Shown here: positions 6,576 to 60,500 of the stretch, piece by piece
Position numbering within the stretch: position 1 is the stretch's first letter
Layout of the letters: every line of letters starts with the position of its first letter
Source: Atrina japonica
Taxonomy: Eukaryota; Mollusca; Bivalvia; Pterioida; Pinnidae
Assembly (NCBI GenBank): GCA_030159075.1
Contig: BROG01001181.1
Location: 1-64,000 of the forward strand
DNA: 64,000 nucleotides
Reading direction: 5' to 3'
The notes under the pieces: generated by a model
Databases searched by the model: none
Seen by the model: only the letters and a program-made list of their open reading frames with translations
What the model was told of the DNA's origin: nothing
Position numbers and translations under genes: made by a program

Positions 6576-6863
6576 CTATTTTTTCCTCCATCTTGAAAAA
6601 CTGTGTAAAGCAGCACTAAATGTTTGTAGCAAAGATGGTGTAGTTTTTGAGCGCATTAAAAGACTTCTGGCTTCTGCCTCATAGCCACTGTCATGTAGCC
6701 GTTCTGCCAATCTATCCACGGACATGAACTCAGGTGTGGTCTCTGAAGGTTCCTGTCTTGATAAAAGATAGTCAATAACAATTGGAAAGTACACCGTGTG
6801 TACTATACTGGAAACTAAATCAGTCTTCAACAGCAGGTAACTGAACTCATCATCTGCCTCTAC
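6576..6863 (-). CDS. NBAS: NBAS last coding exon W34 (95 codons plus TAG)
   Basis: Encodes VEADDEFSYLLLKTDLVSSI, TVYFPIVIDYLL, MSVDRLAERLHDSGYEAEAR, and SAALHSFSRWRKK before TAG at 6576-6578. It matches the family C-terminus (LGRHLREAGHEAEAGSLL...FSTALRA). The acceptor is TGTTTTAG|GTAGAG. The 3' UTR continues to the left. Confidence 0.96.
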   Translation of the reverse strand, partial: VEADDEFSYLLLKTDLVSSIVHTVYFPIVIDYLLSRQEPSETTPEFMSVDRLAERLHDSGYEAEARSLLMRSKTTPSLLQTFSAALHSFSRWRKK

Positions 6864-15800: not shown

Positions 15801-18264
15801 ATGTGTAGGTGAGTGTATAGGCCTGTATGGTTGTATAAACATGTGTAGGTGAGTGTATAGGCTTGTATGGGTGTATAAACATGTGTAGGTGAGTGTATAG
15901 GCCTGTATGGTTGTATAAACATGTGTAGGTGAGTGTATAGGCCTGTATGGGTGTATAAACATGTGTAGGTGAGTGTAACATCATGAGATATAATTCCAAA
16001 TGATAATCTCTGCCAATACACACTTCTATACGACAGATTAAACAAAGACAAAAATCTCACAATAATGATGTCTCATTGCTCTGAAAGAGAATAAGATGGT
16101 CTGACCAGTTGACCACTGATACCTTTGATAGACCCCTCTACATCTTTTTCTCTAGAGATGAAATACCTCACAGTAATATCTCTCTCTTTATTCTTTTTTA
16201 AACCAAGATGGTCTGACCAGTTGACCACTGTTACCCCAAACACACCCCTCTACATCAATTTTCTAGAGATGAAATACCTCACACCAATATCTCTTTTTAT
16301 TCTAGTTTAAACCGAGATGGTCTGACCAGTTGACCGCTGATATCCTAATACACCCCTTACATCTTTTTTTTTCTCTAGAGATGAAATACCTCACACCAAT
16401 ATCTCTCTCTTTATTCTATTTTAAACCAAGCTGGTCTCACCAGTCGACCACTGATACCCTTAACACACCACTCTACAGATTTTTACAAGTAAACTAAAGG
16501 TAAAACTTATGTCACTGTACTGTTTAAAACATTGTTCTCCTCAGCTGACCACTAAGGCCATAACTTACTCTCCATTTTTCTAGAGTTGTTTCAACTCACC
16601 CTACTTCCTTGTGGTGCTGAACAGACTCTACTACGTCTTGTAAACACACCAACGCCGATCTCCCTAACACACCCAACTCTTCTGTAGCGGAACCCCTGTA
16701 TACAAAAAATACATACAATATACATAAATACATTGTAAACACACCAAGGCTGATCTCCCTAACACACCCAACTCTTCTGTAGTGGAACCCCTGTATACAA
16801 AAAATACATACAATATACATAAATACATTGTAAACACACCAACGATGATCTCCCTAACACACCCAACTCTTCTGTAGCGGAACCCCTGTATACAAAAAAT
16901 ATACATGAATATTTACTCTCCATACCAAAAAATGAAGAGTCATGTCAAATAATGAACACTGTCATGTCAAATAATGAACACTGCCATGTCAAATAATGAA
17001 CATTGTCATGTCAAATAATGAACACTGCCATGTCAAATAATGAACAGTCATGTCAAATAATGAACACTGCCATGTCAAATAATGAACATTGTCATGTCAA
17101 ATAATGAACACTGTCATGTCAAATAATGAATATTGTCATGTCAAATAATGAACACTGCCATGTCAAATAAACACTGCCATGTCAAATAATGAACACTGCC
17201 ATGTCAAATAATGAACAATGTCATGTCCAAAAAGTCAAGTCACATGAAAAGCTATTGTCGTGTCAATCAATGACCACCGACATATCAGACAAAGACCTCT
17301 GTCCAGTAAGACATTCCTACTGTCTCTCAAATGACCACTGACATATCAGACAAAGACCTCTGTCCAGTAAGACATTCCTACTGTCTCTCAAATGACCACT
17401 GACATATCAGACAAAGACCTCTGTCCAGTAAGACATTCCTACTGTCTCTCAAATGTCTTGTCATGTAAATTACTATTGTCATGTCAAATAATGACTCATT
17501 AACAAGTCTTAACATGCATGAGACATTTTAATCATTTGGCATAATTACAAACATTTTCTACCTAAAGGGAATCATTCCACGTCAGTCAGTATAGATTCAT
17601 AGCCTGCGGAAGAAGCCTAACTCACTTTGTGCCTGTTGTGGAAGTTCTTTTGCCTTGTATCTAATATTTAGTTTTTTAATTTTTGCAAAAATATATGAGC
17701 AATTCTTATTTTCTTCTCACTGTTTTCACAGACTAAGCTAATGGAGAATTCCTCACCTCAGTGACTTAGTTATACAAGTCATGGCATCTTTGATGACAGT
17801 ACTCAGGGCCGGAGACTCTTTCTCTGTCACCGACATAAGTCTCCAGACAATGTCAAGGTCAACGCCATCCAATATCATGTCCTTGAACAGCTGCAGCAAC
17901 TGCAATACAAATGTGTCAAGTTTTGGCAAATTCAAAATATGAATCAACAACAAGGTGCCATAACTCAGTAAATAGCCAGTGAGAAATTTTGGTTATTAAA
18001 CTTGCGAGCTTTCATCGCAATAAACCTTCTCATAAAGTTTCAAATTAATTCATTGAAAATTGCTCAAGTTATTGAGCAGAAACTGAAATGTGCCTGACGC
18101 CAACCTGGTGACATAACAACACTACCCGTCTTCGATGGGTGTATAAAAAAACTAATGTAATTCTTCAATGGCAATTCTGAATTAGAAACCATTCCTTGAC
18201 ATTCAGATAATTTCAGTTTTCATTAAAACATTTTCTGTATTTTCAAATTCACCTATTAATTTTG

Positions 18265-18356
<92 letters not shown>

Positions 18357-21300
18357 CAGACAGACAGAGGCAGACAGACAGACAGAGACAGACAAGACAG
18401 AGAGAGACAGAAAGACAGACAAACAGACAGACAGACAGCGACAGAGACAGAGAGAGACAGAGACAGATAAACAGACAGGAGTTCTGCAGTCAATGATTGA
18501 TGAATGATGGCTGGTCAAAGCTTGTCTAATAAGCTTACAGTTACATATATACACCATGTCCATGCAAAGCATACACTTCAAAGTTCAAAACATCAGACTG
18601 AAGTATGCAGGTGAAAAGAATCAGAGGACTAAATACTGCTTTAACTTTCCCAAGAGAATAGTTTTGATGGTGTTGTTACAAAGTCAACAGAATGGTACAT
18701 TGATATGTGTCAACTATATAAAAAATGAGTCACTAAAACAATCAAAGTACTCAAAGTACTGAAATGGGCTTGGAAAAATCGTTTTTTTAGAATGTATATA
18801 TGCAGGCTCCAGTTTTCATTGAACATTCTAAAAAACAATTTTTCCGAGCCCCTGTGTGCGATGTAGCAAAACGATCTATCACCAATTTTACTTATAGACA
18901 TCAACGCTTTCGACAAGAGTTAAAACTTTGTTTTTTGTTCAAGACATCGTTTCTGTTTGAAATCCATTTGAACAGATCGATTACACAAAAGTTTCGGTTT
19001 ATACACCAAATCTAACTGTGATTAACTTCGAAAGTTGTGTTAATTGTGTAAACAACCGAAAATGGACATGGACATGGATTTTCTCCAACTTCCGTGGAAA
19101 CGAGTAACATTCAATGCTTGAGTTACCTCCCTTTGCTATATCAATATACACACACTATACATTAACAAGACTGTCTGCTGAAATAGAGCAGTCGCTAGTT
19201 ATGTAAGTCATGTGATCACCATATAGGGTGCGTAAATAAAGGAAACATGCACGGGGAACCTCATTATGGCAGGTTATGTATAGCGATTAGTTGACAAACA
19301 TGTTAATTTGATAGTTTTCAAAATGGACAGGAACTTATTCCTAATGATTTTCAAGCGCCATTTGCATAACAAGCACCTCCTACTCGATACTATATCCTCT
19401 ACTCTGCTTTTATTTTCATTTTTCCATGGACTAGAAAACATACATATTCTTGAGAGTTCAAAAGAAATTGATTTAGCTTCATGTTGGTATCAGCGATATG
19501 CAATTATTTCTATTTACATCGCTGTATGCTTGTAGCTATCAATATAATGAATGGCGGAATAATACTGCAGTTTCTCAAGGCAGGCTCCACATTACTGGAA
19601 TCTTATATAGTGGAATTCCAAATTTATAAATATATCGATGACGTTTTGTTGAAACTAACTACAAATCGTATTGTTTAATTTCGAAAGGCAAAAGTAAAAG
19701 TTATGTGGTATTTCATTTAATATTTATTCAAACTAGATTTCATTTCATTTACACTAAAATATTTGACTTTTCTGTAGAATTTGAATTCTTGAGTTGGACT
19801 AGATTTTAAATGAAGTGCGGATGCAACCTCCATGACCTCTTTACTGCTAAAAGGATAACCCTCGATGAAAAATCGAAGTAAACCCATAATAGGTTGTTAT
19901 TACATAACAACCCATAAAAACAGACTACCTTTGTATCCAGGCCTTTAGATAGGTCATACTGCCTGATGTATACAGCCCCCTACCTTTGTATCCAAGCCTG
20001 TAGATAGGTCATACTGCCTGATGTATACAGCCCCCTACCTTTGTATCCAAGCCTGTAGATAGGTCATACTGCCTGATGTATACAGCCCCCTACCTTTGTA
20101 TCCAGGCCTTTATATGGTTGTATTGCCCGATATACACAGCGCCCTACCTTTGTATCCAGGCCTTTAGATAGGTCATACTGCCTGATGTATACAGCCCCCT
20201 ACCTTTGTATCCAGGCCATTATATGGTTTTATTGCCTGATATACACAGCGCCCTACCTTTGAATCCAAGCCTCTAGACAGGTCATACTGCCTGATGTACA
20301 AGGCGAGTGTCTTGTCCTGGGACAGTTCACACACGATGTCATGCCTCAGTGATTCTATATGACCCAGATACATCTGTAGTTTGTTGGATGTTTCTTCCCA
20401 TGTTGACTTTTGACTGAAAGAGAGAAATACACAACTGTGTAATTACACAGAATACAGGTGTACACTTATCATTGGCGTGATACATATACATGATATATCT
20501 TTCTCCCATTGTTCACAGAGTTGTCCTTCATTTCAATGCGAAATGATTTCCCTGTCAACGCCTAGGATATTGACAAGCTACACGCACTATGACATCACAA
20601 TACAGTTTACACTATGTAGGGTGTCTGTTGCATCTAGAATGCAGTGCGTAATGTCAGATTTCATTTGCGTAAATCTTCATATACATGCATGGGAGAAAAA
20701 TAATCAACCCCTACCTTGAGGGTATAACAAAGGAATCTCAATCCTCGGGATAAGATTCTTGAATGACAAAACCTCTGCCAGCCTGGGGTTTGTCATTATT
20801 CAAGAATCTTATCCTCCGATCGAGATTCCTCTGTCATACCCTCAACGTAGGGGTAGATTCTATTAATCACTTAAGAATCAGACACATGAACACTTGTTAT
20901 TGGCATGATATATATACATCACTTCAAAATCATACACATGTACACTAAATATTGTCGTGATACTTATATCAACCAATTCAGAACAGGACATATGTACACT
21001 AAATATTGCCGTGATACATATATCCACCACCTCAGAACTGGACATATGTACACTTCTTTCTGGAGTGGTTCACAGACATTTTTTTTTATTGTAAATCAAA
21101 ACGTGGTTGTGAAATTTTTTTTTGTATGTATAGTCATTTCTTGTAGGCTTAATCTATGGCAGAATTTATTTTATACAACAAGTATCATAAGACTATGCAT
21201 TACGGTAACAAAAGTGAGTATAATTTTTATTTTACTCTATAGATTTCATATAAAACCATGGTCATTTCATGTTCAATTTCAACAAAATTTTCAGCATTAA

Positions 21301-24300
21301 CAATTAATGCTTTCAAGTTTCTGTATTTCTTTTGATGTAAATTCCATTGTTTCGTCTTATAGTTCAGATGAATTTTGCAGGATACAAAATTTTAGTTTTG
21401 CAGAATACAAAATTTTAATGTCTCTTTTCAATATAAGTAAACAGGTAATTATGACATATTATGTATATGATATAGAATTTAATTTTAAATTTTAACTTTT
21501 GAATCTTGAAAACAGAAAATTTGAACATTATGAACTTATACAAAATCAAACTGGTAAATATTTGTTTTTGTTTTGTGGTATATGTTTTACCAAAATTGAT
21601 TTAGAAATGACTTAAAAGGAATGTTTTGAAAATTTATGGACTGATATGAAATATTTAGAGAAAACTAAAAATTTTACTCACCTTTGTTATTCTATTATCC
21701 TTCAGGTTCTCACTTCAACACTGAAGAGTGCTATTTATTTTAGTATAAACACAACAAAGGTCATAAGTTCAACTTTATTTTCTGTTTCATTTCTCACAAG
21801 AAAATGTGAATATAAACTTAAGATTGACTTTGTACCTTAAGGCCTCCATTTTCTTTTTTCCACCCTGCTGCCGACTGAACTTCAATGTCCGACGAATTAT
21901 CTCTTGTCGACAATCTAAATCAAGCTGAAAAATTAAAATCAAAATCCGAATTTACAGGGAGATAGGCTAATTAAAACATGTAAAAGTCAACAGTTATTAA
22001 ATGTATAAAATGTTGGTCCAGCCACAATTTATTTGGCAGGTTTCAACTTTAATGTGGACCCTGTTTTGATAACAGAAATTTGTCACAGCATGTTCAGCAG
22101 CAGTATAGAGGTCAGCTGAGGAGTAGAGTGTTTTAAAACCGGATAACAATATTACACAAAATATAGGCTGTGTCTGTAAAAGACCACGGCGTCAGTCTAT
22201 CTGAGGAGTAGAGTGTTTTAAAACCGGATAACAATATTACACAAAATATAGGCTGTGTCTGTAAAAGACCACGGCGTCAGTCTATCTGAGGAGTAGAGTG
22301 TTTTAAAACCGGATAACAATATTACACAAAATATAGGCTGTGTCTGTAAAAGACCACGGCGTCAGTCTATCTGAGGAGTAGAGTGTTTTAAAACAGGATA
22401 ATAATGTTACACAAAATATAGGCTGTGTCTGTAAAAGACCATATGTCAGTCTATCTGAGGAGTAGAATGTTTTAAAACAGGATAATAATGTTACACAAAA
22501 TATAGGCTGTGTCTGTAAAAGACCATATGTCAGTCTATCTGAGGAGTAGAGTGTTTTAAAACAGGATAATAATGTTACACAAAATATAGGCTGTGTCTGT
22601 AAAAGACCATATGTCAGTCTATCTGAGGAGTAGAGTGTTTTAAAACAGGATAATAATGTTACACAAAATATAGGCTGTGTCTGTAAAAGACCATATGTCA
22701 GTCTATCTGAGGAGTAGAATGTTTTAAAACAGGATAAAACAATGTTACACAAAATATAGACTGTCTGTAAAAGACCATATGTCAGTCTATCTGAGGAGTA
22801 GAGTGTTTTAAAACAGGATAAAACAATGTTACACAAAATATAGACTGTCTGTAAAAGACCATATGTCAGTCTATCTGAGGAGTAGAGTGTTTTAAAACCA
22901 GATAACAATATTACACAAAATATAGACTGTCTGTAAAAGACCATATGTCAGTCTATCTGAGGAGTAGAGTGTTTAACAGGATTACAAATATTAAATCAAA
23001 TACAGGCTGTACCTGTCCAGGACATGAGAGGCCTGTAAGACAGAAATTAAGTCACCGTCCTGTCATCCATGTCTATTTCAAACTTTAACTATAAACTAAA
23101 TATATTGGATTAAGATTTTAAGAGTTTGTAACAGTGACTGTGTAACGACATTTTTGTGTGAATGCTGATCTGATTAACATTCAAGATGGAAACTACAAAG
23201 TGGCCAATGCTAGGCGAGACAAAAATTGTAACATGTTTTTACCCAACTCAGTTGACAACGTTATAGCAAATATTGTGATTAAATAAAGACCTGAAGACAC
23301 GAAAAATTCTAAAAGAAGCTACACAAAAGCTTGACAAAAATAACTATGATGCCGATGAATTTAAACGAAGATGATCCCCTGAGTTTTACAACAGTCAGTT
23401 TACGGTCTGTACGTACAGTGTACATGTCTATCTTTCCTCTAGATCTTACCGTCTATAGGGACATGTCTGTAAATACTATATCATCTATAAAGCCAGTAAT
23501 ATCATCAGAACAGCCTGTACGTACAGAATATAGATCTTACCGTCTATAGGGACATGTCTGTAAATACTATAGCATCCATAAAGCTGATAACACCATCAGA
23601 ACAGCCTGTATGTACAGTGTAAAGATCTTACCGTCTATAGAGACATGTTTGTAAATACTATATCATCTATAAAGCCAGTAATATCATCAGAACAGCCTGT
23701 ACGTACAGAATATAGATCTTACCGTCTATAGGGACATGTCTGTAAATACTATATCATCTATAAAGCCAGCCATATCATCAGAACAGCCTGTACGTACAGC
23801 GTATAGATCTTACCGTCTATAGAGACATGTTTGTAAATACTATATCATCTATAAAGCCAGTAATATCATCAGAACAGCCTGTACGTACAGAATATAGATC
23901 TTACCGTCTATAGGGACATGTCTGTAAATACTATATCATCTATAAAGCCAGTAATATCATCAGAACAGCCTGTATGTACAGCGTATAGATCTTACCGTCT
24001 ATAGGGACATGTCTGTAAATAGTATAGCATCTATAAAGCTGATAACATCATCAGAACAGCCTGTATGTAGTGTATAGATCTTACCGTCTATAGGGACATG
24101 TCTTTAAATACTATAGCATCTATAAAGCCAGCCATATCATCAGAACAGCCTGTATGTACAGCGTATAGATCTTACCTTCTCTAGGGACATGTCTGTAAAT
24201 ACTATATCATCTATAAAGCCAGCCATATCATCAGAACAGCCTGTACGTACAGAGTATAGATCTTACCGTCTCTAGGGACATGTCTGTAAATACTATATCA

Positions 24301-27300
24301 TCTATAAAGCCGATCATATCATCAGAACAGCCTGTATGTAGTGTATAGATCCTACCTTCTCTAGGGACATGTCAGTAAATACTATAGCATCTATAAAGCT
24401 GATCACATCATCAGGTAAGAGTTTGTGCATTGTTTCTCCGCAGCTTTCAAATCTGTGTACCCAGGCAGTCTACAAACACAGTAAAGACTGGATAACAAAA
24501 ACAAATCTCCGGAAAAAATGTAGGTCATAGTCAGGGTCGTAACATCAAATATTTCCGGTGGAAAGTTTGCCACAAAGTATGAACATAAAAATATCAAGTG
24601 TAAAAAAATCAAATGTAAAAATATCAAATGTAAGAATATCAAATGTAAAAATATCAAACGTAAAAATATCAAATGTAAAAATATCAAATGTAAGAATATC
24701 AAATGTAAAAATATCAAATGTAAAAATATCAAACGTAAAAATATCAAATGTAAAAATATCAAATGTAAGAATATCAAATGTAAAAATATCAAATGTAAAA
24801 ATATCAAATGTAATATAAACATAAAAATATCAAATGTAAGAATATCAAATGTAAAAATATCAAATGTAAAAATATCAAATGCAACAGTATCAAATGTAAA
24901 ATTATAAACCTGAAAATATCAAATGTAAAAATATCAAATGTAAGAATATAAACATAAAAATATCAAATGTAAGATAAACTTGACTTTGATTTGATTTTGA
25001 ATGGTGTTTTATGCCACTTGCTTTACCCATTTGGCCACAGAAGTCCTGTGTAAGATTAAAAGAATTAAGACCAAATAGTTACAGGCACTTTTATCAGAGA
25101 GAACATGAACATAATGACGAAATAAGAATATGAAATATAACGTGTATAAAAAGCAGACAGAATGAAAACAATGTGATCCATATAATGTTTGTTGTTCTTG
25201 TCGCCCATCATTTGTTTACTTCTGCATCTTCAATGTTGTTTTGTTTTATTTGCTTGTTTATTTTATTGCTGTTTAACGCCCCATTCAAGAATCTTTCACT
25301 CATATGGAGACGTCACCAAATGCTGGTGAAGAGCTTCAAATTTTGGCCTATGCTCGGCACTTCATTGAGCAGTGGCGGTTCTTTCAACATGCCGACATGT
25401 GACACAGGCCTAGGTTTTTACTGTCTCAGACTAAAGGACAGGAAACCGACCTGCTGCCAGCTGGACTTGAACTCATGAACTCATAACTCATGACCTCATG
25501 ATCAAGAGTCCAGCGTGCTACCAACTGAGCCAGGCCGGTTTCAATGTTGTTTTGTGTCCTATCAGCTGTCGGTAAGGTCACATAAATTTTGACCTTCACT
25601 AAGGACTTAAGGCAGGATGCAGTCAAGATTCTGCAATATGTCACAACATAAAAATTAGGATTTCATGTGACGTCCAGACGCAAGATGACGTGTTTATTAT
25701 CATTATGCCAAGTATCTGTTGAAAATACAGCTTACACCCTTGTTTAAAATATTCTTATGTCTCTGCCTGGATTTGATCTTTGTACACTTAGCTTATGAGG
25801 TGATAAATCTTTCAGTCACTGCTGTAAGTTTGTATCATCATGAATATGTAAATACTAGATTATGTAAATATGTACAAAACAAAAACTTACAGAGGACTCT
25901 GGAACTTTTTTCCTATCAGAGTCCCAAAAGATTTTGACAGCCCATGCACACTGCACAGTACTGGAGTGTAGATAACCTCCATGCTGAAAAAAATACAAAA
26001 CATGGCATACAAAATGATATAAATTACCACAGTGTAATGATCTGATAATAACTTCAGGACTATGACAAGATATAAATTACTACATGTACAGTGTCATGGT
26101 CACTTTGATAATAACTTCACACCTATGACATGATATAAATTACTACAGTGCATGGTCACTTTGATAATAACTTCACACCTATGACATGATATAAATTACT
26201 ACAGTGTCATGGTCACTTTGATAATAACTTCACACCTATGACATGATATAAATTACTACAGTGCATGGTCACTTTGATAATAACTTCAGGACTATGACAT
26301 GATATAAATTACTACAGTGTCATGGTCACTTTGATAATAACTTCAGGACTATGACATGATATAAATTACTACAGTGTCATGGTCACTTTGATAATAACTT
26401 CACACCTATGACATGATATAAATTACTACAGTGTCATGGTCACTTTGATAATAACTGCAGGCATATGACATGATATAAATTACTACAGTGTCATGGTCAC
26501 TTTGATAATAACTTCAGGACTATGACATGATATGAATTATTACAGTGTAATGATTTGATAATAACTTAAGGAATATAACATGATATAAGTTAAAAGTTTC
26601 ATTGTCGCTTTGATAATAATCTAAGTGTAGGTGATATAGTCCAGGCCTATAGGAAAGAGCTGTCACTATCATAATATTATAACTCTAATAGAGTAACCCC
26701 TTAATAGTGGATTAAGAATCATTAAATTGCAGACACATTAAGAACATTAGCTGATAAACCACATTGAGCATTTGCTCAAACATTATACATGCTTTATTGT
26801 ATGTCTGTACTATATATGGCTACATATGTATATGTGATACTGACACGCCCCCATGCATTAAGTATTATTGTATGTCTGTACTATATATATGTGATACTGA
26901 CACGCCCCCATGCATTAAGTATTATTATATGTCTGTACTATATATGACTACATATGTATATGTGATACTGACACGCCCCCATGCATTAAGTATTATTGTA
27001 TGTCTGTACTATATATATGTGATACTGACACGCCCCCATGCATTAAGTATTATTGTACATCTGTACTATATATATGTGATACTGACACGCCCCCATCCAT
27101 TAAGTATTATTGTACGTCTGTACTATATATGGCTACATATGTATATGTGATACTGACACGCCCCAATGCATTAAGTATTATTGTATGTCTGTACTATATA
27201 TGACTACATATGTATGTGTGATACTGACACGCCCCCATCCATTAAGTATTATTGTATGTCTGTACTATATATATGTGATACTGACACGCCCCCATGCATT

Positions 27301-30300
27301 AAGTATTATTGTATGTCTGTACTATATATGACTACATATGTATATGTGATACTGACACGCCCCCATGCATTGTCTGTACTATATATGACTACATATGTAT
27401 GTGATACTGACACGCCCCCGTCCATTAAGTATTATTGTACGTCTGTACTATATATGACTACATATGTATATGTGATACTGACACGCCCCCATGCATTAAG
27501 TATTATTATATGTCTGTACTATATATGACTACATATGTATGTGTGATATTGACATGCCCCCATGCATTAAGTATTATTGTATGTCTGTACTATATATGAC
27601 TACATATGTATGTGTGATATTGACACGCCCCCATCCATTAAGTATTATTGTACGTCTGTACTATATATGACTACATATGTATATGTGATACTGACACGCC
27701 CCCATGCATTAAGTATTATTGTATGTCTGTACTATATATGACTACATATGTATGTGTGATATTGACACCCCCCATGCATTAAGTATTATTGTACGTCTGT
27801 ACTATATATGACTACATATGTATGTGTGATACTGACACGCCCCCATGCATTAAGTATTATTGTATGTCTGTACTATATATGACTACATATGTATGTGTGA
27901 TATTGACACCCCCCATGCATTAAGTATTATTGTACGTCTGTACTATATATGACTACATATGTATGTGTGATACTGACACGCCCCCCCATGCATTAAGTAT
28001 TATTGTATGTCTGTACTATATATGACTACATATGTATATGTGATATTGACATGCCCCCCCCATGCATTAAGTATTATTGTACGTCTGTACTATATATGAC
28101 TACATATGTATGTGTGATACTGACACGCCCCCCCCCATGCATTAAGTATTATTGTACGTCTGTACTATATATGACTACATATGTATGTGTGATACTGACA
28201 CGCCCCCATCCATTAAGTATTATTGTATGTCTGTACTATATATGACTACATATGTATGTGTGATATTGACACGCCCCCATGCATTAAGTATTATTGTATG
28301 TCTGTACTATATATGACTACATATGTATGTGTGATACTGACACGCCCCCCCATGCATTAAGTATTATTGTATGTCTGTACTATATATGACTACATATGTA
28401 TATGTGATATTGACACGCCCCCATGCATTAAGTATTATTGTATGTCTGTACTATATATGACTACATATGTATGTGTGATATTGACACCCCCCATGTATTA
28501 AGTATTATTGTACGTCTGTACTATATATGACTACATATGTATGTGTGATACTGACACGCCCCCATGTATTAAGTATTATTGTACGTCTGTACTATATATG
28601 ACTACATATATATATGTGATACTGACACGCCCCCCCATGCATTAAGTATTATTGTATGTCTGTACTATATATGACTACATATGTATATGTGATACTGACA
28701 CGCCCCCATGCATTAAGTATTATTGTATGTCTGTACTATATATGACTACATATGTATATGTGATATTGACACGCCCCCATGCATTAAGTATTATTGTAAT
28801 GCACCCCCATCCATTAATTAATCTCCTAATGGACCCCCTGTTGGGATCTTTTCTATTAATATTGCGATCAATGAAAAGAAAAAAGAATTTCGAGTGTTGT
28901 TTGTTTCAAGTACATTTCATTGTCGGTGTCATCCAAAATCATGAAACTGAACATGGTGGAAGGATTTTTAATTCTTTGTTGGCCAGAATATTGGAATTCA
29001 AAAGTATGTTGCTATTGTTGTATCTTGTTATAAATTGTAATTTAGACATGATCAAATATCAGGCTGATATTGGGAACCTTGGGCTGAGAAGGAGTATGAT
29101 ATCAAAATGGTGATGAGAGTCTGATATCGGGAACTTTGGGCTGAGGTGTATAATATCAAAATGGTGATGAGGGTCTGATATTGGAACATTGAGCAGAGGA
29201 GTATGATATCAAAATGGTGATGAGGGTCTGATATTGGAACATTGAGCAGAGGTGTATAATATCAAAATGGTGATGAGGGTCTGATATTGGAAACTTTGGG
29301 CTGAGGTGTATAATATCAAAATGGTGATGAGGGTCTGATATTGGAAACTTTGGGCTGAGGTGTATAATATCAAAATGGTGATGAGGGTCTGATATTGGGA
29401 ACTTTGGGCTGAGGTGTATAATATCAAAATGGTGATGAGGGTCTGATATTGGAAACTTTGGGCTGAGGTGTATAATATCAAAATGGTGATGAGGGTCTGA
29501 TATTGGGAACTTTGGGCTGAGGTGTATAATATCAAAATGGTGATGAGGGTCTGATATTGGAAACTTTGGGCTGAGGTGTATAATATCAAAATGGTGATGA
29601 GGGTCTGATATTGGGAACTTTGAGCAGAGGAGTATGATATCAAAATGGTGATGAAGGTCTGATATTGGGAACTTTGGGCTGAGGTGTATAATATCAAAAT
29701 GGTGATGAGGGTCTGATATTGGAAACTTTGGGCTGAGGTGTATAATATCAAAAGGGTGATGAGGGTCTGATATTGGAACATTGAGCAGAGGAGTATGATA
29801 TCAAAATGGTGATGAGGGTCTGATATTGGGAACTTTGGGCTGAGGTGTATAATATCAAAATGGTGATGAGGGTCTGATATTGGAAACTTTGGGCTGAGGT
29901 GTATAATATCAAAATGGTGATGAGGGTCTGATATTGGAAACTTTGGGCTGAGGTGTATAATATCAAAATGGTGATGAGGGTCTGATATTGGAAACTTTGG
30001 GCTGAGAGGTGTATAATATCAAAATGGTGATGAGGGTCTGATATTGGGAACTTTGGGCTGAGGTGTATAATATCAAAATGGTGATGAGGGTCTGATATTG
30101 GGAACTTTGAGCAGAGGAGTATGATATCAAAATGGTGATGAGGGTCTGATATTGGGAACTTTGGGCTGAGGTGTATAATATCAAAATGGTGATGAGGGTC
30201 TGATATTGGAAACTTTGGGCTGAGGTGTATAATTTCAAAATGGTGATGAGGGTCTGATATTGGAACATTCAGCAGAGGAGTATGATATCAAAATGGTGAT

Positions 30301-48300: not shown

Positions 48301-48501
48301 CATAACAAAATCAGCTGAAGTTCCAAAGGGATACAGACTGACAGACAGAGTCAAGGAAAGATAGACTGATAGATAGGCACAGACAAGCAGGAAAACAGAT
48401 AAACAAAAACAGACAGACAGACACAGAGAGAGAGAGACACACAGACAGACAAACAGAAAGACAGCCTGACCCACAGATAGACAGAAGGTATGATATACAG
48501 A

Positions 48502-48548
<47 letters not shown>

Positions 48549-51500
48549 AAACACACACAGGCATACATACACACACAGAGACAAACACACATACAAAGAG
48601 ACAGACATACTTGTTCATCAACAACTTCAGAGTACTCACTTTCCCTTGATATCAGTAAAGTCTTCCTCCCATGCCAGATCTACACACACATTCCATGCAG
48701 GACCATAGTCACTGTCCATCAGTGTGGTGCAAATCTCAAAGCCAAACATGTAGTCACCATCCTGAAATACAGAATATAGCGTCACCATCCTGAAATACAG
48801 AACATGTAGCAACAATCCTGAAATACAGAAAAGAAAGTCACCATCCTGAACTACAAAATACACAGTCACCATCCTATAATACATAGCGTAGTCATCATTC
48901 TGTAATACAGGTCATGTAGTCACCATGCTATAATACAGAACATATAGTCACAATCCTGTATAACAGAACATAAAGTCAACATCCTGAACTACAGAATATA
49001 GTCACATTCCTGAAAAACAGAACATGTAGTCACCATCCTGAACTACAGAATATAGTCACAATCCTGTTATACATAACATAGCCATACATTCTGTTATACA
49101 GAAAAAGTAGTCACCATCCTATAATACAGAACATGTAGTCACCATCCGATAATACACAACCTGTAGTCACCATTCTGAAATAATTACCTTAAAAGCAGAA
49201 TCAGTGACTAGATGTAGTACTTATGATAATTACCTTGAAAGCAGTCTCAGCCACTAAATGCATCTTGTGATAATTACCTTGGCAGTGGCATGCCACCAGA
49301 TATAGCTTGTCTAATAATTACTTTGGCAGTGGCATACCACCAGATATATCTTGTCTAATAATTACCTTGGCAGTGGCATGCCACCAGTTGTATCTTGTCT
49401 TATAATTACTTTGGCAGTGGCATGCCACCATATGTATCTGGTCTAATAATTACCTTGACAGCAGCATCGGCAACAAGATGTAGTATTTTGCCTTCCCTGT
49501 CATCTCTGTCGTTACTGTCAACTCGTAGCAAATGACTAAGTCGCAGAATCTGTAATGTAACATTGTAACTTTGTCAGGTGTGAATGATACATAATAAGGT
49601 CACTTTAAGGTGTGAATGATGCCATATATGTCACTTTGTCAGGTGTCAATGATGTGTAGTAATGTCACTTTGTCACCTGTCAATGATGTGTAATAATGTC
49701 ACTTTGTCAACTGTCAATGATGCGTAATAATGTCATTTTGTCAGGTGTGACTGATGCATAATAATGTCACTTTGTCAGGTGTCAATGATGCATAATAATG
49801 TCACTGTCAGCTGTCAATGATGCATAATAATGTCACTTTGTCAGCTGTCAAATGATACATAATAATGTCAATTTGTCAGATATCAGTTATGAAATGAAAG
49901 CTAAAATGACTATAATCCGATTATCACTTGACTAATAATCGACTACCATATGTATGTAGCTACTATTACACAATTATTGACTGGGTCCGAGGGCAACAGC
50001 AATTTTCTTGGCATCTGAGGTCTTGACTATTGTGATTTTTGAAATTTGACATGCCACCTTGGTAACCACGCGAGGGCCGAGAGTAAAAATTATAAGACTT
50101 GGCAAGAAAAACTGTTTTTGTAGGCAATGTTTAATAGCAAGACTGTTACTAATTTTCTCCCAAAGTTTGAATAGGGACTATTAATTGACCACATGTAGCT
50201 ACTACTTTCTGCTGTTTGTAAGATCACAGAATGACAACTATCTGACTACTGTATATACTATTTAACCATATGTAGCTATGACCATTTTGTGCTATTTTTA
50301 AGATCTAAACTTACATGACTATTGCCTGGCTACTATTTGACTATTATTTGACTACAAACTACATTTTTGTGCTTTTATTAAGATCTAAGCTAAATGACTA
50401 TTGCCTATTATTTGACTATAACCTACATTTTATACCATTTTTAGATTTAAGCTAAATGACTATTGCCTGACTATCATATGACTATAAGCTACATTTTGTA
50501 CTCTTTCTAAGATCTAAGCTAAATGACTATTGCCTGACTATTATGTGAATATAAGCTACATTTTGTGCTACTTTTAGATCTAAGCTAAATGACTATTGCT
50601 TGACTATTATTTGACTATAAGCTAGATTTTGTACTTTTTCTAGATCTAAGCTAAATGACTATTGCCTGACTATTATTTGACTATAAGTGACATTTTGTGC
50701 TATTTTTAGATCTAAGCTAAATGACTATTGCTTGACTATTATTTGACTATAAGCTACATTGTTGTAAGATTTAAACTAACATGACTATTGCCTGGATACT
50801 ATTTGACTATTTATTGACTACAACTACATTTTTGTTTTTTTTTTTAAGATCTAAGCTAAATGACTATTGCCTGACTATTAAAGGGGCATTAGCCATGTTT
50901 TTTTTCAAAAAATTATCTTCCATTTTTACTTTTTAGATCTATAGCCTATAAGTCTGATTTTCTAGAGTAAATTTACAAACTCAAAAAGGGGTACTGACTT
51001 GTAGGCTAGTCCTAGTCTGTAGGCATGAAAGAGAGCTGACATCTTGTGAAAATTCAATGAATGAATGATTGAATGATTATAATTCTGAAAACTGCCGAGG
51101 TAATCCATTGGTTAAAACAGACTTAATGAATTGATAGATTAAAAATACTGTGTGTTTGTTTATTCATAAATGCCGCCTGGATTATTAAACAAAGGGGCAG
51201 TGTCACTTGAGTCTGTTTATCCAGTCAGACAGAACACCTGTGGTTGTATACACATGTCACTGATACTGAAGTAACAGCTAGTAACTATTAACACTTTCAG
51301 AGAACAACAGATCAAATGGGTCATGTCAATTGATTACTTTGTCTAAACAAATCGGGTCGCACAAGCTGAATATGTAGATAAGAGAGGCCTAATAAAAACT
51401 GCATAAACAATTCAGTCGTTCTGCCTGGATCGTTTCACTTTAACCCTTACAGTACATGAACATCACTTCTTGATTGGACACACACATGGGGTGCAAATTA

Positions 51501-54500
51501 ACGGGTGCCCGTTCGCCCGAGGCAACTGAAATTACAATCAGGCGTATTGTTTTACGTACAAAATCGCCTGTTTGGAGAAATGATTTCAGGAATTTTTTTG
51601 GCAACTTTTAGGGGCCGTTATTCGGTCCATTGATTGACTACAAGCTACCTTTTTGTGCTGTTTGTAAGAAGACTCTTTTTTGCTGATCGCCATCTTCACC
51701 AACTCTAGCCGATCTTTTGAAAGGCGTACTGAAAATGAAAGTTAGGCTGTGGTAAATCTGAACATTTTAAACAGAAACAATGAAACACCTTTGATAGATT
51801 TTTTCTGAGGATATATATTAATTTTTAAAAAAAAAAAAAAAAAAAATTTGACTATTTACAACATGGCAAGGACTAGATTTAGCAATGTAGACAGTGAAAC
51901 CTGTATATAGCAACTTCCTTAGGAACACAAAGAAAACCGGTCTTTATAGGGAGGTGGTCTTTATACAGAGGTTGATTTGTACAGAAACGGTACTATTGGG
52001 GACAGAAAAAAAAGTCTTTGTGATCAGGTGGTCTTTATACATAGGAGGTCGTTAGAGAAGGTTTCACTGTAGTTTAAACCTAGATAATTATCTAAAATCA
52101 ATTTCAGACTTGAAATAGAGAAAATTTACAATCAACAGCAACACAGGAAGAGAAAGGATGAAAATCAGAAGAATTATGATTTGTTTTTATTATATAATCA
52201 TTTTCATCCGATATAGGCCTGAAAAAATGAAAAACCAGAACTAAATCGAGAGGACTCAAAACTGGCATATACCCTGTAACGGCAGTAAAGTGACTCCAAA
52301 GTCATCCAGTAACGATAAGGAAGCGATCAAATCCAGCTCTTCTTGTATCTCCGGAGGAGGTGGGGAATCCAGGATCATATTTAGACAGGATCTGAAGTTT
52401 GCAATACAGAAATAACCATGACAACAGACAATGAATGGTGAGTGACATGGCTGCAAAAATAGGTCAAACTGATACTGAATTATACAGAATTTCATATATA
52501 TATAGAAATTCTTGAATAGAATTTCAAGCTTTTCAGGTGCGAGTAAATTAATCAAGGGCTACATCTGAGTTCATGATAGAAATAAGTTAGTCCCCGATGG
52601 GATGAATTAACATCCCAAACTCATTCTACTGCCTCAGTTGGGTTCTTGATCCATCCCAATCTCGACTGACATTTTCCTTTTTGGATGTGACAATGCATAA
52701 CAACTACAGGGGTTAGGGTCCTTACAGGGGTCTGTTATACTGGAGGAGGGGGGGGATTAGTGTGTATAAAGTTACCTTGCCAGATCTATACAGGGACTGT
52801 TATACTAGGGGAGGAATTAGTGTGTATAAAGTTACCTTGCCAGATCTATACAGGGGTCTGTTATACTGGGGGAGGAATTAGTGTGTATAAAGTTACCTTG
52901 CCAGATCTATACAAGGGTCTGTTATACTGGGGGGGATTAGTGTGTATAAAGTTACCTTGCCAGATCCATACAAGGGTCTATTATATTAGCGGAGGAATTG
53001 AAATATTCTTGTGCTGCAGAGACTACAAGCTGAATTGATCTCTTGAAGGGAACTTTATGATAACGTTGATAGGAGTGTACAGATGTCTTACTGTCCGCCA
53101 AACATCTTTCCAGATATTCTCCGGCCAGAGTTATGTTCTCTTTAGTACTGGAGCAAAGTAAGCTCTCTGTAAATATCTGAAACATGATAAGAGAAATGTT
53201 AGTCTCCATAAATATTTGAAATGCAACAGATCTCAGAAAATATCTGAAAGGCAACAAGAGCAAAGTCAGCTCTCTGCATGCTCTGCAAATGTCTAAATCG
53301 TGAAAGCTGTAAATATCTAAATCGTGAAAGCTGTAAATATCTAAATCGTGAAAGCTGTAAATATCAAAATCGTGAAAGCTGTCCATAAACATGATAAATA
53401 TCTGAAAAGTGATCAGGTTAGACTTTCAACCAGAAATAATTTTGAAAACATAAAGATTTATCATCAAAGAACACCTTCCGAGAATTTTTGTCTTGTATAA
53501 CAACACACCTATCACCATATAGACACACCTGTAATTACACTAACATCATGACACAGACCAGCTGATATACATGATATACACCTGTACACCTTGTCTAACA
53601 ACACACCTGTCATTATAGAGACACACCTGTATTTACACTCACCTCATGACACAGACCAGCTGATATACACCTGTACGTACACCTTGTCTAACAACACACC
53701 TGTCATTATATAGACACACCTGTAATTACACTCACCTCATGACACAGACCAGCTGATATACACCTGTACACCTTGTCTAACAACACACCTGTCATCATAT
53801 AGATACACCTGTAATCACTCACCTCATGACACAGACCAGCTGATATACACCTGTACACCTTGTCTAACAACACACCTGTCATTATATAGACACACCTGTA
53901 ATTACACTCACCTCATGACAAAGACCAGCTGATATACACCTGTACACCTTGTCTAACAACACACCTGTCATTATATAGACACACCTGTAATTACACTCAC
54001 CTCATGACACAGACCAGCTGATATACACCTGTACACCTTGTCTTGTAGTTCCAACACGTCTGTATGTAGCTTTTTCCAGTCCATTTGACTGTGTACCTTG
54101 CTGAGAAGTTTAAAAATAGTTGAATTACAATATATTACATTAATATGACAAACGTGATTGACAATGGACAGGTACTTATTAAAAACAGAGTGTATAATGT
54201 CGGTTGTAATTAAACAAAGACACAGCTTTGGGAATTCATCATGCGGATAATGAACAATAGAAATTATGTTTATTTGCAGAAATTTTTCACTTTTATGTAA
54301 TTATGAAGTAAGATAATCAATGTTAATTGTAAATTATACTTTGAACATTGTTTCATTTTACACAAATAGTGGCTTCTTGTGCTTTGGTTTGAAGCCATGA
54401 TTACTGATATCAACAATTGTTTTAGTGAGCATATTACATAGGAATAATCTTTTTTTCAAGATTTTCAGCCTCAAAAACAAGGTACGAACATTACATCGGT

Positions 54501-57500
54501 GCACAGATTACATGGGTGCACAGATTACATGGGTGTGCAGATTACATGGGTGCGCAGATTACATGTGCAGATTACATGGGTTGTGTAGATTACATGGGTG
54601 CGCAGATTACATGGGTTGTGTAGATTACATGGGTGCACAGATTACATGGGTTTTTATGGTAGTTACTAATAACACAGGAATGATTTACAGATTTGCTGGG
54701 AAAATATGTTTTCCAATTCTGAGATGTAGCATTAAATATTGTGGGACATTCTGTGTTCAACATTTATCTATTTTTCTGTCACCAAGTTTATCTGACTGAG
54801 GTAGGACTTGACCCTTTATGTGAAGGATGTTTAGTCATCATTTCCCTGTCTGCCCAAGGATCAGGAACAAGAATGTTTTACCTTCTTCCAGCTGTCCGTG
54901 TAAGTTTGACCATTAGACTTTTTGTTTCGTCTGCATTTGTCTGTAAATATTAAAACACAGATGTTACACTTTTCACAACAAGATTTATGATACATGACAA
55001 GAGACTCTACAAATTATCAAGCTTTCAAAAAACTGACGAAACACCACGGCAATCAAAGTTGACATAGAATCAAAAAGCATATATATGCATGAGAAGTTGC
55101 AGTGTGAAAAGTAGAGACAGATAGACATGACCTCAGTACCATACTCTTATATATTTAATATTCTTTATCTAAATATATCCAGAAATTATTTCTTTTTGAG
55201 TTATTTTGCATGATTTGTGGGCGGGTAGAAGTTTGAGGGGGCTAGTAGAATTTTTTATGCTGCTGGCCCTGGGGTCCACTTGGGAAATAATATTAAATTC
55301 AAACCCCGTAAAACCATTGCAGCATTTAATTTCAGCCCAAGGAATGGGAAAAAAGTAAGTATGGCTGCCACACTATTGATGGCAGGATAGATAAACACAT
55401 TGGTGAATGAGACAACTAGATAAAATAAATATGTCTCGGTTTTTTTATTGTTGGGGGGTGGGGGTAGGGGGGTTATGGCAGGGGAGATATTTTATAGATT
55501 AAACATCTGTGAGCTGGAACACTGACCTCAGAATCTCTGATGTAGAACAATGGTTTCTTCAGTCCGTACTCTTCCAGAATCTTAGCCGCACTGCAAATTA
55601 CGCACAAGAAGAGCATTAATTAGCTTACATCCACTGACAAACAAAAATCTTATAAATAAATTATTTGACGATACATGATATATTTCTTGATATCTGGTGG
55701 GATGGCGACTTGTGAACCCTTTCTTGACTAGAACGAGTTTGAATTTTAGGTAATAAAGCGTCACATCACAATTACACTGATTAGAGTAATCGTTCCTACT
55801 TGTCATCATACATAAGACAGTATCCAGTGAGGAATAAAAAAATTTTCTCTCCGTGCAACTTGTCATAACCTAAAAGTGAGTGGAATAATCCATATGATAT
55901 CAAACCCCACCAACTTATGTGAATTGGACAACAACAAAACTAAAAAATGGTATGTCAAAAAGTACAAGATTAATAGAATCTATGCCTAACATGAGGGTAT
56001 GACAAAAGAACCTCAATCCTAGGTTAAGATTCTTGAATGACAAACCTGAGGCTTTCGGAGAGTTTGTCATTGAAGAATCTTATCCTGAGGACTGAGATTT
56101 CTTTGGCATATCCTCAAAGTAGAGGTTGATTATTTTTCTCCCATTTCTTAAATATATGCCTATGTACATTTACACATAATATACAAGTCTATATAGATCT
56201 ATATATCTGAGTCATGTCTGACATAAATATATTTACCCGATACGCCTCTATATGTAGAAGTTTATATCACTTTATATATTACCCGATATGCCTCTACATG
56301 TCGCAGTTCATATCGCTATGTTACCTGATATGCCTCTACATGTAGCAGTCCATATCATTATATATTATCTGATATGCCTCTACATGTAGCAGTCCATATC
56401 ATATGTTATCTGATATGTCCTACATGTAACAGTCCATATCATTATATGTTATCTGATATGCCTCTACATGTCGCAGTTCATATCATTATGTTACCTGATA
56501 TGCCTCTACATGTAGCAGTCCATATCATTATATGTTATCTGATATGCCTCTACATGTAGCAGTCCATATCATTATATGTTACCTGATATGCCTCTACATG
56601 TAGCAGTCCATATCATTATATGTTATCTGATATGCCTCTACATGTCGCAGTTCATATCATTATGTTACCTGATATGCCTCTACATGTCGCAGTCCATATT
56701 ATTATGTTACCTGATATGCCTCTACATGTAGCAGTCCATATCGTTATGTTACCTTATATGCCTCTAAATGTTGCAGTCCATATCGTTATGTTACCTCTAC
56801 ATGTCGCAGTTCATATTGTTATGTTACCTGATATGCCTCTACATGTAGCAGTCCATATCATTATATTACCTGATATGTCTTTACATGTCGCAGTCCATAT
56901 TGTTATGTTACCTGATATGCCTCAAAATGTCGCAGTCCATATCACTATATTACCTGATATGTCTTTACATGTAGCAGTCCATATCGTTATGTCACCTGAT
57001 ATGTCTCTACATGTCGCAGTTCATATCGTTATGTTACCTTATATGCCCCTATATGTCGCAGTTCATGTCGTTATCTTACCTGATATGCCTCTACATGTAG
57101 CAGTTCATATCGTTGTTACCTGATATGCCTCTACATGTCCCAGTCCATATCATTATATTACCTGATATGTCTTTACATGTAGCAGTCCATATCATTATGT
57201 TACCTGATATGCCTCTACATGCAGCAGTCCATATCGTTATGTTACCTGACATACCTCTACATGTCGCAGTCCATATCGTTATATGTTACCTGATATGCCT
57301 CTAAATGTAGCAGTCCATATCGTTATATGTTACCTGATATGCCTCCACATGTAGCAGTCCATATCTTTATATTACCTGATATGTCTTTACATGTCGCAGT
57401 CCACATCGTTATATGTTACCTGATATGCCTCTACATGTAGCAGTCCATATCATTATATTACCTGATATGTCTTTACATGTTGCAGTTCATATCGTTATAT

Positions 57501-60500
57501 TTTACCTGATATGCCTCTACATGTAGCAGTCCATATCATTATATTACCTGATATGCCTTTACATGTCGCAGTCCATATCGTTATATGTTACCTGATATGC
57601 CTCTACATGTAGCAGTCCATATCATTATGTTACCTGATGTGCCTTTACATGTCGCAGTCCATATCGTTATATGTTACCTGATATGCCTCTACATGTAGCA
57701 GTCTATATCGTTATATGTTACCTGATATGCCTCCACATGTAGCAGTCCATATCATTATATTACCTAATATGTCTTTACATGTCGCAGTTCACATCGTTAT
57801 ATGTTACCTGATATGCCTCTACATGTAGCAGTCCATATCATTATATTACCTGATATGTCTTTACATGTCGCAGTTCATATCATTATATTTTACCTGATAT
57901 GCCTCTACATGTAGCAGTCCATATCATTATATCACCTGATATGCCTTTACATGTCGCAGTCCATATCGTTATATGTTACCTGATATGCCTTTACATGTCG
58001 CAGTCCATATCGTTATATGTTACCTAATATGCCTCTACATGTCGCAGTCCATATCGTTATATATTACCTGATATGCCTCTACATGTCGCAGTCCATATCA
58101 TTATATTACCTGATATGTCTTTACATGTCGCAGTCCACATCGTTGTATGTTACCTGATATGCCTCTACATGTAGCAGTCCATATCATTATATTACCTGAT
58201 ATGTCTTTACATGTTGCAGTTCATATCGTTATATTTTACCTGATATGCCTCTACATGTAGCAGTCCATATCATTATATTACCTGATATGCCTTTACATTG
58301 CGCAGTCCATATCGTTATATGTTACCTGATATGCCTCTACATGTAGCAGTCCATATCATTATGTTACCTGATATGCCTTTACATGTCGCAGTCCATATCA
58401 TTATATGTTACCTGATATGCCTCTACATGTAGCAGTCCATATCGTTATATGTTACCTGATATGCCTCCACATGTAGCAGTCCATATCATTATATTACCTG
58501 ATATGTCTTTACATGTCGCAGTCCACATCGTTATATGTTACCTGATATGCCTCTACATGTAGCAGTCCATATCATTATATTACCTGATATGTCTTTACAT
58601 GTCGCAGTTCATATCGTTATATTTTACCTGATAAGCCTCTACATGTAGCAGTCCATATCATTATATCACCTGATATGTCTTTACATGTCGCAGTCCATAT
58701 CGTTATATGTTACCTGATATGCCTTTACATGTCGCAGTCCATATCGTTATATGTTACCTGATATGCCTCTACATGTTGCAGTCCATATCGTTATATATTA
58801 CCTGATATGCCTCTACATGTCGCAGTCCATATCATTATATTACCTGATATGTCTTTACATGTCGCAGTCCACATCGTTATATGTTACCTGATATGCCTCT
58901 ACATGTAGCAGTCCATATCATTATATTACCTGATATGTCTTTACATGTCGCAGTTCATATCGTTATATTTTACCTGATATGCCTCTACATGTAGCAGTCC
59001 ATATCGTTATATCACCTGATATGCCTTTACATGTCGCAGTCCATATTGTTATATGTTACCTGATATGCCTTTACATGTCGCAGTCCATATCGTTATATGT
59101 TACCTGATATGCCTCTACATGTCGCAGTCCATATCGTTATATATTACCTGATATGCCTCTCCAGTATGTCTACTTGTTTATGCAGTTCTTGAGACTCAAG
59201 GGATTCTGTTCTGTAAAATAAGAAAATTCAAAATCTAAGAAAACAGTAAATTTATCCTCTTTCCACAAAATGAATACACAAATAAGAACATTAAGAACAA
59301 ATAGGTATTCTGAGAGAACAGAGAAATCCAAGTGTTCCCAGGGTATATGCACTCCCACACATGCATGATCTGGACAGATGTCAGCTGTTAGAGTGATTAC
59401 GTTTAGTCATCATATGTCAGTGATTACCCTAACTCAGCACCTGTTAGAGAGTAATTACTTTTACTCACCAGATGTCAGTGATTACCCTAACTCATCACCT
59501 GTTAGCCAGTGATTACTTTTACTCATCAGATGTCACAGTGATTACCCTTTCTCATCAGCTGTTAAAGTGTGATTACTTTTACTCATCACATGTTAATGAT
59601 TACTCACTAGGCTTATCACAGTGATTTTCATTACATCATAACCTGAACTGTATCATGCTGATGTCATCTATGCTTTACCTAGTTATCATGCTGATGTTAT
59701 CTATTATTTAGCCACAGTTATCATGCTGCTGTTATCTATTATTTAGCCACAGTTATCATGCTGATGTTATCTATTATTTAGCTAGTTATCATTCTGATGT
59801 TATCTATGCTTTAGCTACAGTTATCATGCTGATGTTATCTATGCTTTAACTAGTTATCATGCTGATGTTATCTATTATTTAGCAAGTTATCATGCTGATG
59901 TTATCTATTATTTAGCTACAGTTATCATGCTGATGTTATCTATTATTTAGCTAGTTATCATGCTGATGTTATCTATGCTTTAGCTACAGTTATCATGCTG
60001 ATGTTATCTATGCTTTAGCTAGTTATCATGCTGATGTTATCTATTATTTAGCAAGTTATCATGCTGATGTTATCTATTATTTAGCTACAGTTATCATGCT
60101 GATGTTATCTATTATTTAGCTAGTTATCATTCAGATGTTATCTATGCTTTAGCTAGTTATCATGCTGATGTTATCTATGCTTTAGCTACAGTTATCATGC
60201 TGATGTTATCTATGCTTTAGCTAGTTATCATGCTGATGTTATCTATGCTTTAGCTAGTTATCATGCTGATGTTATCTATTATTTAGCAAGTCATCATGCT
60301 GATGTTATCTATTATTTAGCTAGTTATCATTCTGATGTTATCTACGCTTTAGCTACAGTTATCATGCTGATGTTATCTATGCTTTAGCTAGTTATCATGC
60401 TGATGTTTATATTATTTAGCAAGTTATCATGCTGATGTTATCTATTATTTAGCTACAGTTATCATGCTGATGTTATCTATTATTTAGCTAGTTATCATGC

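What the first reader, a model, noticed from the sequence alone, without database searches (positions are those of the whole stretch)
16641..59160. Tandem arrays repeatedly seeded by NBAS splice junctions
In at least twelve cases the repeat unit of an intronic array contains the exon edge plus the adjoining splice site of the neighbouring NBAS exon. Eight are 5' splice-site type (W4, W7, W8, W11, W20, W22, W24, W26) and four are 3' splice-site type (W8, W12, W19, W28). Probable extra cases are W10, W14 and W2. The array always extends into the intron, leaving one intact exon. One explanation is that random tandem duplication across a junction is tolerated because the proximal junction still works. 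The number in a single gene also suggests something that favours amplification at transcribed exon edges. I know of no named class of minisatellite with this property.
Basis: seen in the sequence. Interest (0 to 1): 0.88.

Follow-up and report, generated by a model that had tools for sequence, protein, structure and literature searches.

The report
Splice-site "mirage" repeats in a bivalve
In one gene of a bivalve, many exon edges with their splice signals have been copied in tandem into the neighbouring intron, giving rows of duplicate splice sites; such arrays are already known from lancelets as "mirages", and they seem to be tolerated rather than used.

Summary
The window holds the C-terminal 1416 codons of NBAS on the minus strand in 34 exons; the best listed relative is Pinctada imbricata, 59% identical. 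Tandem arrays make up about 25.9 of 52.8 kb of its intron DNA. Twelve of the 66 junctions of its 33 introns have been amplified: 9 donors and 3 acceptors. At eleven the array touches the exon; the exon-10 array lies about 0.8 kb away. Intron 11 consists entirely of two such arrays. Random placement gives 3.9-4.6 junction arrays against 11 seen (P 0.001-0.003; up to 0.025 in the strictest variant): a 2- to 3-fold excess, in one gene picked after the fact. "The array always extends into the intron" follows from geometry. A named class exists: amphioxus "mirages" (PMC3087553, PMC3902484; passages). Copied splice signals are about as conserved as the rest of the unit, 106 of 107 tested decoys would break the protein, and the protein is undisturbed at the array junctions. 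Best reading: neutral mirages, tolerated because the innermost acceptor-donor pair is used. New here are the phylum and the density.

The parts
6576..63654 (-). NBAS gene, C-terminal part: 34 exons, 1416 codons to the stop
   Evidence: Continuous frame, blastp 40-64% identity to Patiria, Elysia and Tegillarca NBAS; 59% to Pinctada imbricata over 100% of query; Pfam NBAS_11th
56228..59160 (-). Donor array of exon 4 (exon 59210-59148); 43-bp unit, about 68 copies, 13 exonic nt per unit by TRF
53492..54043 (-). Donor array of exon 7; 89-bp unit, 6 copies, 43 exonic nt
52719..52999 (-). Donor array of exon 8; 61-bp unit, 4 copies, 44 exonic nt
50338..50880 (-). Detached array derived from the exon-10 donor (exon ends 51649), about 0.8 kb from the exon; 66-bp unit
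   Evidence: Own-junction score 54 against at most 30 for 67 other exon-edge probes and at most 34 for 298 random probes
49179..49461 (-). Donor array of exon 11; 44-bp unit, 7 copies; with the next array fills intron 11. TRF gives 49270-49461; the low end is from blast copies
48745..49182 (-). Acceptor array of exon 12; 28-bp unit, about 16 copies, 17 exonic nt
40016..40562 (-). Acceptor array of exon 19; 41-bp unit, 13 copies (two TRF rows joined)
   Evidence: TRF overlap only 4 exonic nt, blast copies reach 17-19 exonic nt
38292..38747 (-). Donor array of exon 20; 161-bp unit, 3 copies, 67 or more exonic nt
37799..38253 (-). Second array from the exon-20 donor; 51-bp unit, 8-9 copies
31568..32379 (-). 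Donor array of exon 22; 82-bp unit, 10 copies, 67 exonic nt
23440..24399 (-). Donor array of exon 24; 91-bp unit, 11 copies, 44 exonic nt by TRF; all 10 decoys tested would add a stop
19925..20298 (-). Donor array of exon 26; 55-bp unit, 7 copies, 42 exonic nt; its first decoy is the only protein-compatible one of 107 tested
16638..16901 (-). Acceptor array of exon 28; 95-bp unit, 3 copies, 58 exonic nt
48762..49453 (-). Intron 11, 692 bp, 100% covered by exon-11 donor copies followed by exon-12 acceptor copies

Best explanation
These are mirage-type minisatellites: tandem duplications whose founding unit happened to span a splice junction, in a gene whose introns are about half tandem array. 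Shown: the copies, their place, their splice signals and the intact protein frame. Inferred: slippage or unequal exchange enlarged them; the transcript is spliced with the innermost acceptor-donor pair of each exon (exon definition), a rule that fits donor and acceptor arrays alike; the extra sites are neutral passengers. A modest excess at exon edges remains and may come from a mild initiation preference or from better survival of arrays anchored on a conserved exon edge.
For: 12 of 66 junctions amplified. The innermost reading gives one 1416-codon frame. Within 6 residues of the array junctions, 12 molluscan homologues (picked from 122 returned) show no insertion and a mean gap fraction of at most 0.03; exon-edge identity there is 0.536 (n=12) against 0.506 at 54 other edges, P 0.48. 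GT/AG kept in 134 of 145 scored copies, but splice columns are not clearly more or less conserved than other columns: mean mid-rank 0.42 for the dinucleotide and 0.54 for the motif in 9 of the 13 arrays, 0.5 being neutral. 106 of 107 motif-matched decoys would shift the frame or add a stop. 57 of 80 scorable decoy donors score at least as high as the true donor under a consensus matrix I recalled, so choice cannot rest on the motif alone. The same structure, with regular splicing by RT-PCR, is described in amphioxus (passages).
Against: No transcript data: use of the innermost pair is inferred from the protein. The 2- to 3-fold excess, and 21 arrays spanning or within 50 bp of an edge against 10.2-11.7 expected (P 0.00015-0.00035), are not explained by uniform placement. 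Copies show no consistent similarity gradient away from the exon (4 of 9 correlations negative, one with P 0.017), so growth from the exon side is not supported. Exclusion of the exon copy from homogenisation is not settled: exonic identity is below intronic in 8 of 12 arrays, clearly so only for exons 8, 11 and 20. Splice columns vary between arrays: less conserved at exon 22, more at exons 11, 12 and 26 for the dinucleotide.
Confidence: 0.8

Rival explanations
1. Exon edges are preferred initiation sites for tandem amplification, for example through transcription-linked breaks, RNA-DNA hybrids or exon-edge chromatin, so junction arrays are over-produced. (This and the coincidence rival concern the origin of the excess and do not exclude the mirage reading.)
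For: 11 junction arrays against 3.9-4.6 expected; with GC-matched placement 11 against 4.2-5.4 at score cut-offs 50-300 and at least 4 exonic bases; 10 further arrays lie within 50 bp of an exon edge without containing it, 5.8-7.2 expected, P 0.05-0.17; both kinds together 21 against 10.2-11.7, P 0.00015-0.00035.
Against: One gene, chosen because the pattern stood out; the near-edge excess alone is not significant; a survival bias would give the same count.
Confidence: 0.15
2. The multiplied splice sites are functional, giving regulated alternative or unproductive splicing of NBAS.
For: GT/AG kept in 134 of 145 copies; many decoys as strong as the true donor; one decoy (exon 26, +54 nt) is in frame without a stop; the human IFI6 repeat supplies used donor sites (sentence seen).
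Against: Splice columns not more conserved than the rest on average; 106 of 107 tested decoys disrupt the protein; none of the 12 molluscan proteins aligned shows insertions at these junctions.
Confidence: 0.05
3. Assembly artefact: copies created or multiplied by misassembly.
For: In amphioxus the draft genome appears to misassemble one mirage (passage), so copy numbers may be off.
Against: Most extra copies differ from the exon copy, by up to 30% in the listed blast hits, and 12 separate junctions carry 12 different units.
Confidence: 0.03
4. Pure coincidence: arrays fell on junctions only as often as their density predicts.
For: Array density is so high that about 4-5 junction arrays are expected by chance.
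Against: 11 (12 with the exon-10 array) seen; P 0.0006-0.025 over the 60 tests, not corrected for the choice of this gene.
Confidence: 0.12

Closest known systems
Amphioxus mirages (Adh3, globins BflGb6 and BflGb9, TnC, PGBD5; PMC3087553 abstract and passages, PMC3902484 one passage; the original Adh paper of Canestro et al. 2002 is not held and was not read)
   Same: Minisatellite-like tandem repeats spanning exon-intron boundaries, at 5' and 3' boundaries, units 10-160 bp there and 28-161 bp here, many but not all copies with AG/GT, authentic exon at one end of the cluster
   Different: Different phylum; 12 of 66 junctions in one gene part; one array of about 68 copies; one intron made of nothing else. 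Splicing and length variation were tested there and not here
IFI6 (6-16) human minisatellite with multiple splice donor sites (Turri et al. 1995; seen only as a citation and one sentence in PMC4526556)
   Same: Tandem repeat units that carry donor sites at an exon end
   Different: There repeat units are reported as used donors giving three mRNAs; here use is unknown and nearly all tested decoys would break the protein
[quoted passage not shown]
   Same: Tandem duplication of exon sequence with splice signals
   Different: Here existing introns are enlarged; no new intron shown

Membership tests
Mirages (amphioxus) | Tandem repeats whose unit spans an exon-intron boundary | tested here: met
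   12 junctions
Mirages (amphioxus) | Both 5' and 3' boundaries can be affected | tested here: met
   9 donors, 3 acceptors
Mirages (amphioxus) | Minisatellite-size units (10-160 bp in the passages seen) | tested here: met
   28-161 bp
Mirages (amphioxus) | Many but not all repeats keep AG/GT | tested here: met
   134 of 145 scored copies at 11 junctions; exon-10 array not scored
Mirages (amphioxus) | Homogenisation inside the cluster, boundary unit excluded | tested here: inconclusive
   Exonic identity to the exon copy below intronic in 8 of 12 arrays, clear only for exons 8, 11 and 20; no consistent gradient
Mirages (amphioxus) | Regular mRNA splicing not disturbed | not testable with these tools
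   Only indirect: intact frame and colinear protein
Mirages (amphioxus) | Length instability between haplotypes or somatic cells | not testable with these tools
   One haplotype, no reads
Minisatellite supplying used splice donors (IFI6 type) | Repeat units used as donors in mRNA | not testable with these tools
   No RNA; only one of 107 tested decoys is protein-compatible
Intron gain by tandem duplication | A new intron flanked by the duplicated proto-splice site | not tested
   Intron positions of relatives not available as DNA; intron 11 is the best candidate

The most novel reading that the evidence does not exclude
In this lineage exon edges are true hot spots for tandem amplification, so that splice junctions across the genome are continually multiplied, introns grow from their ends inward (intron 11 is entirely such material), and the splicing machinery reliably picks the innermost pair among dozens of equal sites.
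Probability: 0.15. Interest if true: 0.72.

Novelty: new member of a known kind. Interest (0 to 1): 0.45.

Why it matters
The passages I saw use the name mirage only for lancelets; this puts the same structure in a distant animal phylum and at high density in one gene. It gives a natural competition test of splice-site choice: exon 4 is followed by 62 extra copies that keep GT, and intron 11 offers 7 donors and 15 acceptors with intact GT or AG, so RNA reads would directly show whether the innermost acceptor-donor pair always wins. It also offers raw material for intron growth and gain.

Tried and rejected
Growth outward from the exon: not supported, 4 of 9 distance-identity correlations are negative, one of them (exon 22) with P 0.017; arrays with 3 or fewer extra copies were left out. 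Array-to-exon conversion damaging the protein: no sign, exon-edge identity 0.536 against 0.506, P 0.48. Composition as the cause: GC is 0.386 in junction arrays, 0.346 in other arrays, 0.343 in array-free intron and 0.427 in exons; GC-matched placement lowers but does not remove the excess. Junction arrays larger or richer in copies than others: length P 0.08, unit P 0.055, copies P 0.90. Donor preference: 9 against 3 gives a two-sided binomial of about 0.15, done by hand. Not counted though they beat all 65 foreign probes: 36809-37271 (34, exon-20 donor), 46686-47060 (34, exon-13 acceptor), 42943-43127 (28, exon-16 acceptor), 8126-8324 (26, exon-33 donor). Arrays at 6903-7510, 14735-15137 and 22116-23010 carry splice-like motifs but do not match their exon edges. 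First gene-finder pass chose several wrong exons and one donor was off by a base; corrected. fills empty columns of the exon-20 consensus from the exon copy, so its exon-20 exonic-intronic comparison is void; one search replaces it. A scan of prokaryote genome contigs with the Pinctada protein for stray bivalve DNA gave 13 pattern matches and no relative. No RNA family or tRNA in the window. Papers on such arrays in bivalves or molluscs: searches in the held open-access library, listings only, except that passages of two gastropod papers were checked and do not describe them (PMC7931591; PMC7084494); one search of ten was left unused and subscription papers are mostly not held.

Full report
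What the window is. The window carries the C-terminal 1416 codons of NBAS on the minus strand, from 63654 down to the stop at 6576, in 34 exons and 33 complete introns. Draft exons were found by splice and coding scores, identified by Pfam NBAS_11th and by homologues, and corrected by hand until all exons joined into one frame with only the final stop. Among the 120 best of 317 hits listed, the top one is Pinctada imbricata NBAS, 59% identical over 100% of the query; other bivalves with full coverage have 44-53%. The source is therefore most likely a bivalve, species not known to me. The assembly could not be searched.

Array load. TRF gave 148 rows for the window, reduced to 59 non-redundant arrays of score 100 or more, 55 inside the gene and 49 after merging neighbouring rows of the same family by eye. 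They cover about 25.9 of 52.8 kb of intron. This high density is the background against which junction arrays must be judged.

Junction arrays. At eleven junctions an array overlaps the exon edge in TRF coordinates. Independently, a blast of each of the 34 exons with 30-bp flanks against the gene strand found extra junction-spanning copies for 12 exons and none for the other 22. The twelfth, the exon-10 donor, matches an array about 0.8 kb into its intron with score 54, against at most 30 for 67 other exon-edge probes and at most 34 for 298 random probes. A scan of the 55 arrays against 67 exon-edge probes gives own-junction scores of 46-94 for 14 TRF rows from these 12 junctions and at most 40 for any foreign junction; four further arrays beat all foreign probes with low scores of 26-34 and were not counted. 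Result: 9 donors (exons 4, 7, 8, 10, 11, 20, 22, 24, 26) and 3 acceptors (exons 12, 19, 28). Exon 20 has two arrays of different unit (161 and 51 bp), and 41-44 nt of the 161-bp unit occur again in a third array at 36372-36586. Intron 11 (692 bp) is wholly covered by exon-11 donor copies followed by exon-12 acceptor copies.

Is it more than chance? Varying score cut-off, exonic minimum and merging (30 settings, 8-11 junction arrays), plain P runs from 0.0006 to 0.012 and GC-matched P from 0.0017 to 0.025. The exon-10 array was not counted in these tests. Arrays within 50 bp of an exon edge but not containing it number 10 against 5.8-7.2 expected, P 0.05-0.17; both kinds together 21 against 10.2-11.7, P 0.00015-0.00035. 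So there is a 2- to 3-fold excess, but in one gene that was brought forward because of this pattern; the P values are not corrected for that.

What is tautological. A tandem array containing a junction has exon body on one side and intron body on the other, so it must lie on the intron side of the exon and leave one complete exon. That part of the finding adds no evidence.

Do the copies do anything? GT or AG is intact in 134 of 145 scored copies at 11 junctions (the exon-10 array was not scored). But splice columns are on average not better or worse conserved than other columns of the same unit: mean mid-rank 0.42 and 0.54 in the 9 arrays tested of 13, with spread in both directions. Of 107 decoys located by array-specific motifs (a part of all copies, for instance 3 of 15 at exon 12), one (exon 26, first copy, +54 nt) would keep frame without a stop; the other 106 would shift the frame or add a stop. 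Of 116 extra donor copies 80 could be scored, and 57 of these score at least as well as the true donor under a recalled matrix. In 12 molluscan homologues there is no insertion and a mean gap fraction of at most 0.03 within 6 residues of the array junctions, and exon-edge conservation there does not differ from that of other edges. The simplest account is that the innermost acceptor-donor pair is used and the rest are neutral passengers. The innermost-pair rule is an inference from the protein, not from RNA.

How the copies relate to the exon. Extra copies match the exon copy less well in the exonic than in the intronic part in 8 of 12 arrays, clearly at exons 8, 11 and 20. That would fit arrays homogenising among themselves while selection holds the real exon edge, but 4 arrays do not show it. 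There is no consistent decline of similarity with distance from the exon.

Known class. Amphioxus has tandem repeats spanning exon-intron boundaries, called mirages, in Adh3, globin, TnC and PGBD5 genes, with units of 10-160 bp, many but not all with AG/GT, regular splicing by RT-PCR, and length instability (PMC3087553, abstract and passages; PMC3902484, one passage). The structures here meet the four mirage features I could test clearly; one was inconclusive and two could not be tested. A human case with used donor sites, IFI6, was reported in 1995 (cited in PMC4526556), and human tandem repeats at exon-intron boundaries are described in PMC2812944 (passages). I found no report in bivalves or other molluscs in the searches named (passages), which cover only the held open-access library.

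Verdict. Real, better than chance by a modest margin, and a member of a known but little-known kind, in a new phylum and at unusual density. The claim of a new class is not supported; the claim of preferential amplification at exon edges stays open and is directly testable genome-wide.

Noticed in passing
48762-49453: Intron 11 is covered entirely by two junction arrays back to back, a candidate for an intron grown from both its ends.
   Followed up: partly
20690-20880 and 55968-56143: Palindromic, MITE-like element in two copies, 83% identical, matching each other in both orientations.
   Followed up: partly
25240-25580, 10728-10958, 47233-47500, part at 34077-34184: Dispersed repeat (73-78% identical) that by eye has a tRNA-like promoter (SINE-like, from recall); no tRNA called there.
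   Followed up: partly
13378-13623, minus strand: Open stretch with a match to the YqaJ recombinase domain just under Pfam's cut-off (21.9 against 22 bits), inside intron 29.
   Followed up: partly
14230-14420: Long inverted repeat, 82% self-complementary.
   Followed up: no
6903-7510: 21 copies of a 29-bp unit, most by eye with a 5' splice motif (CAG|GTAAGG), that does not match its neighbouring exon edges.
   Followed up: partly
36372-36586: Array whose unit shares 41-44 nt (88-93%) with the intronic part of the exon-20 donor unit 1.7 kb away: the same intron fragment amplified twice.
   Followed up: partly
2983-3748: 288-bp unit repeated 2.7 times beyond the 3' end of the gene.
   Followed up: no
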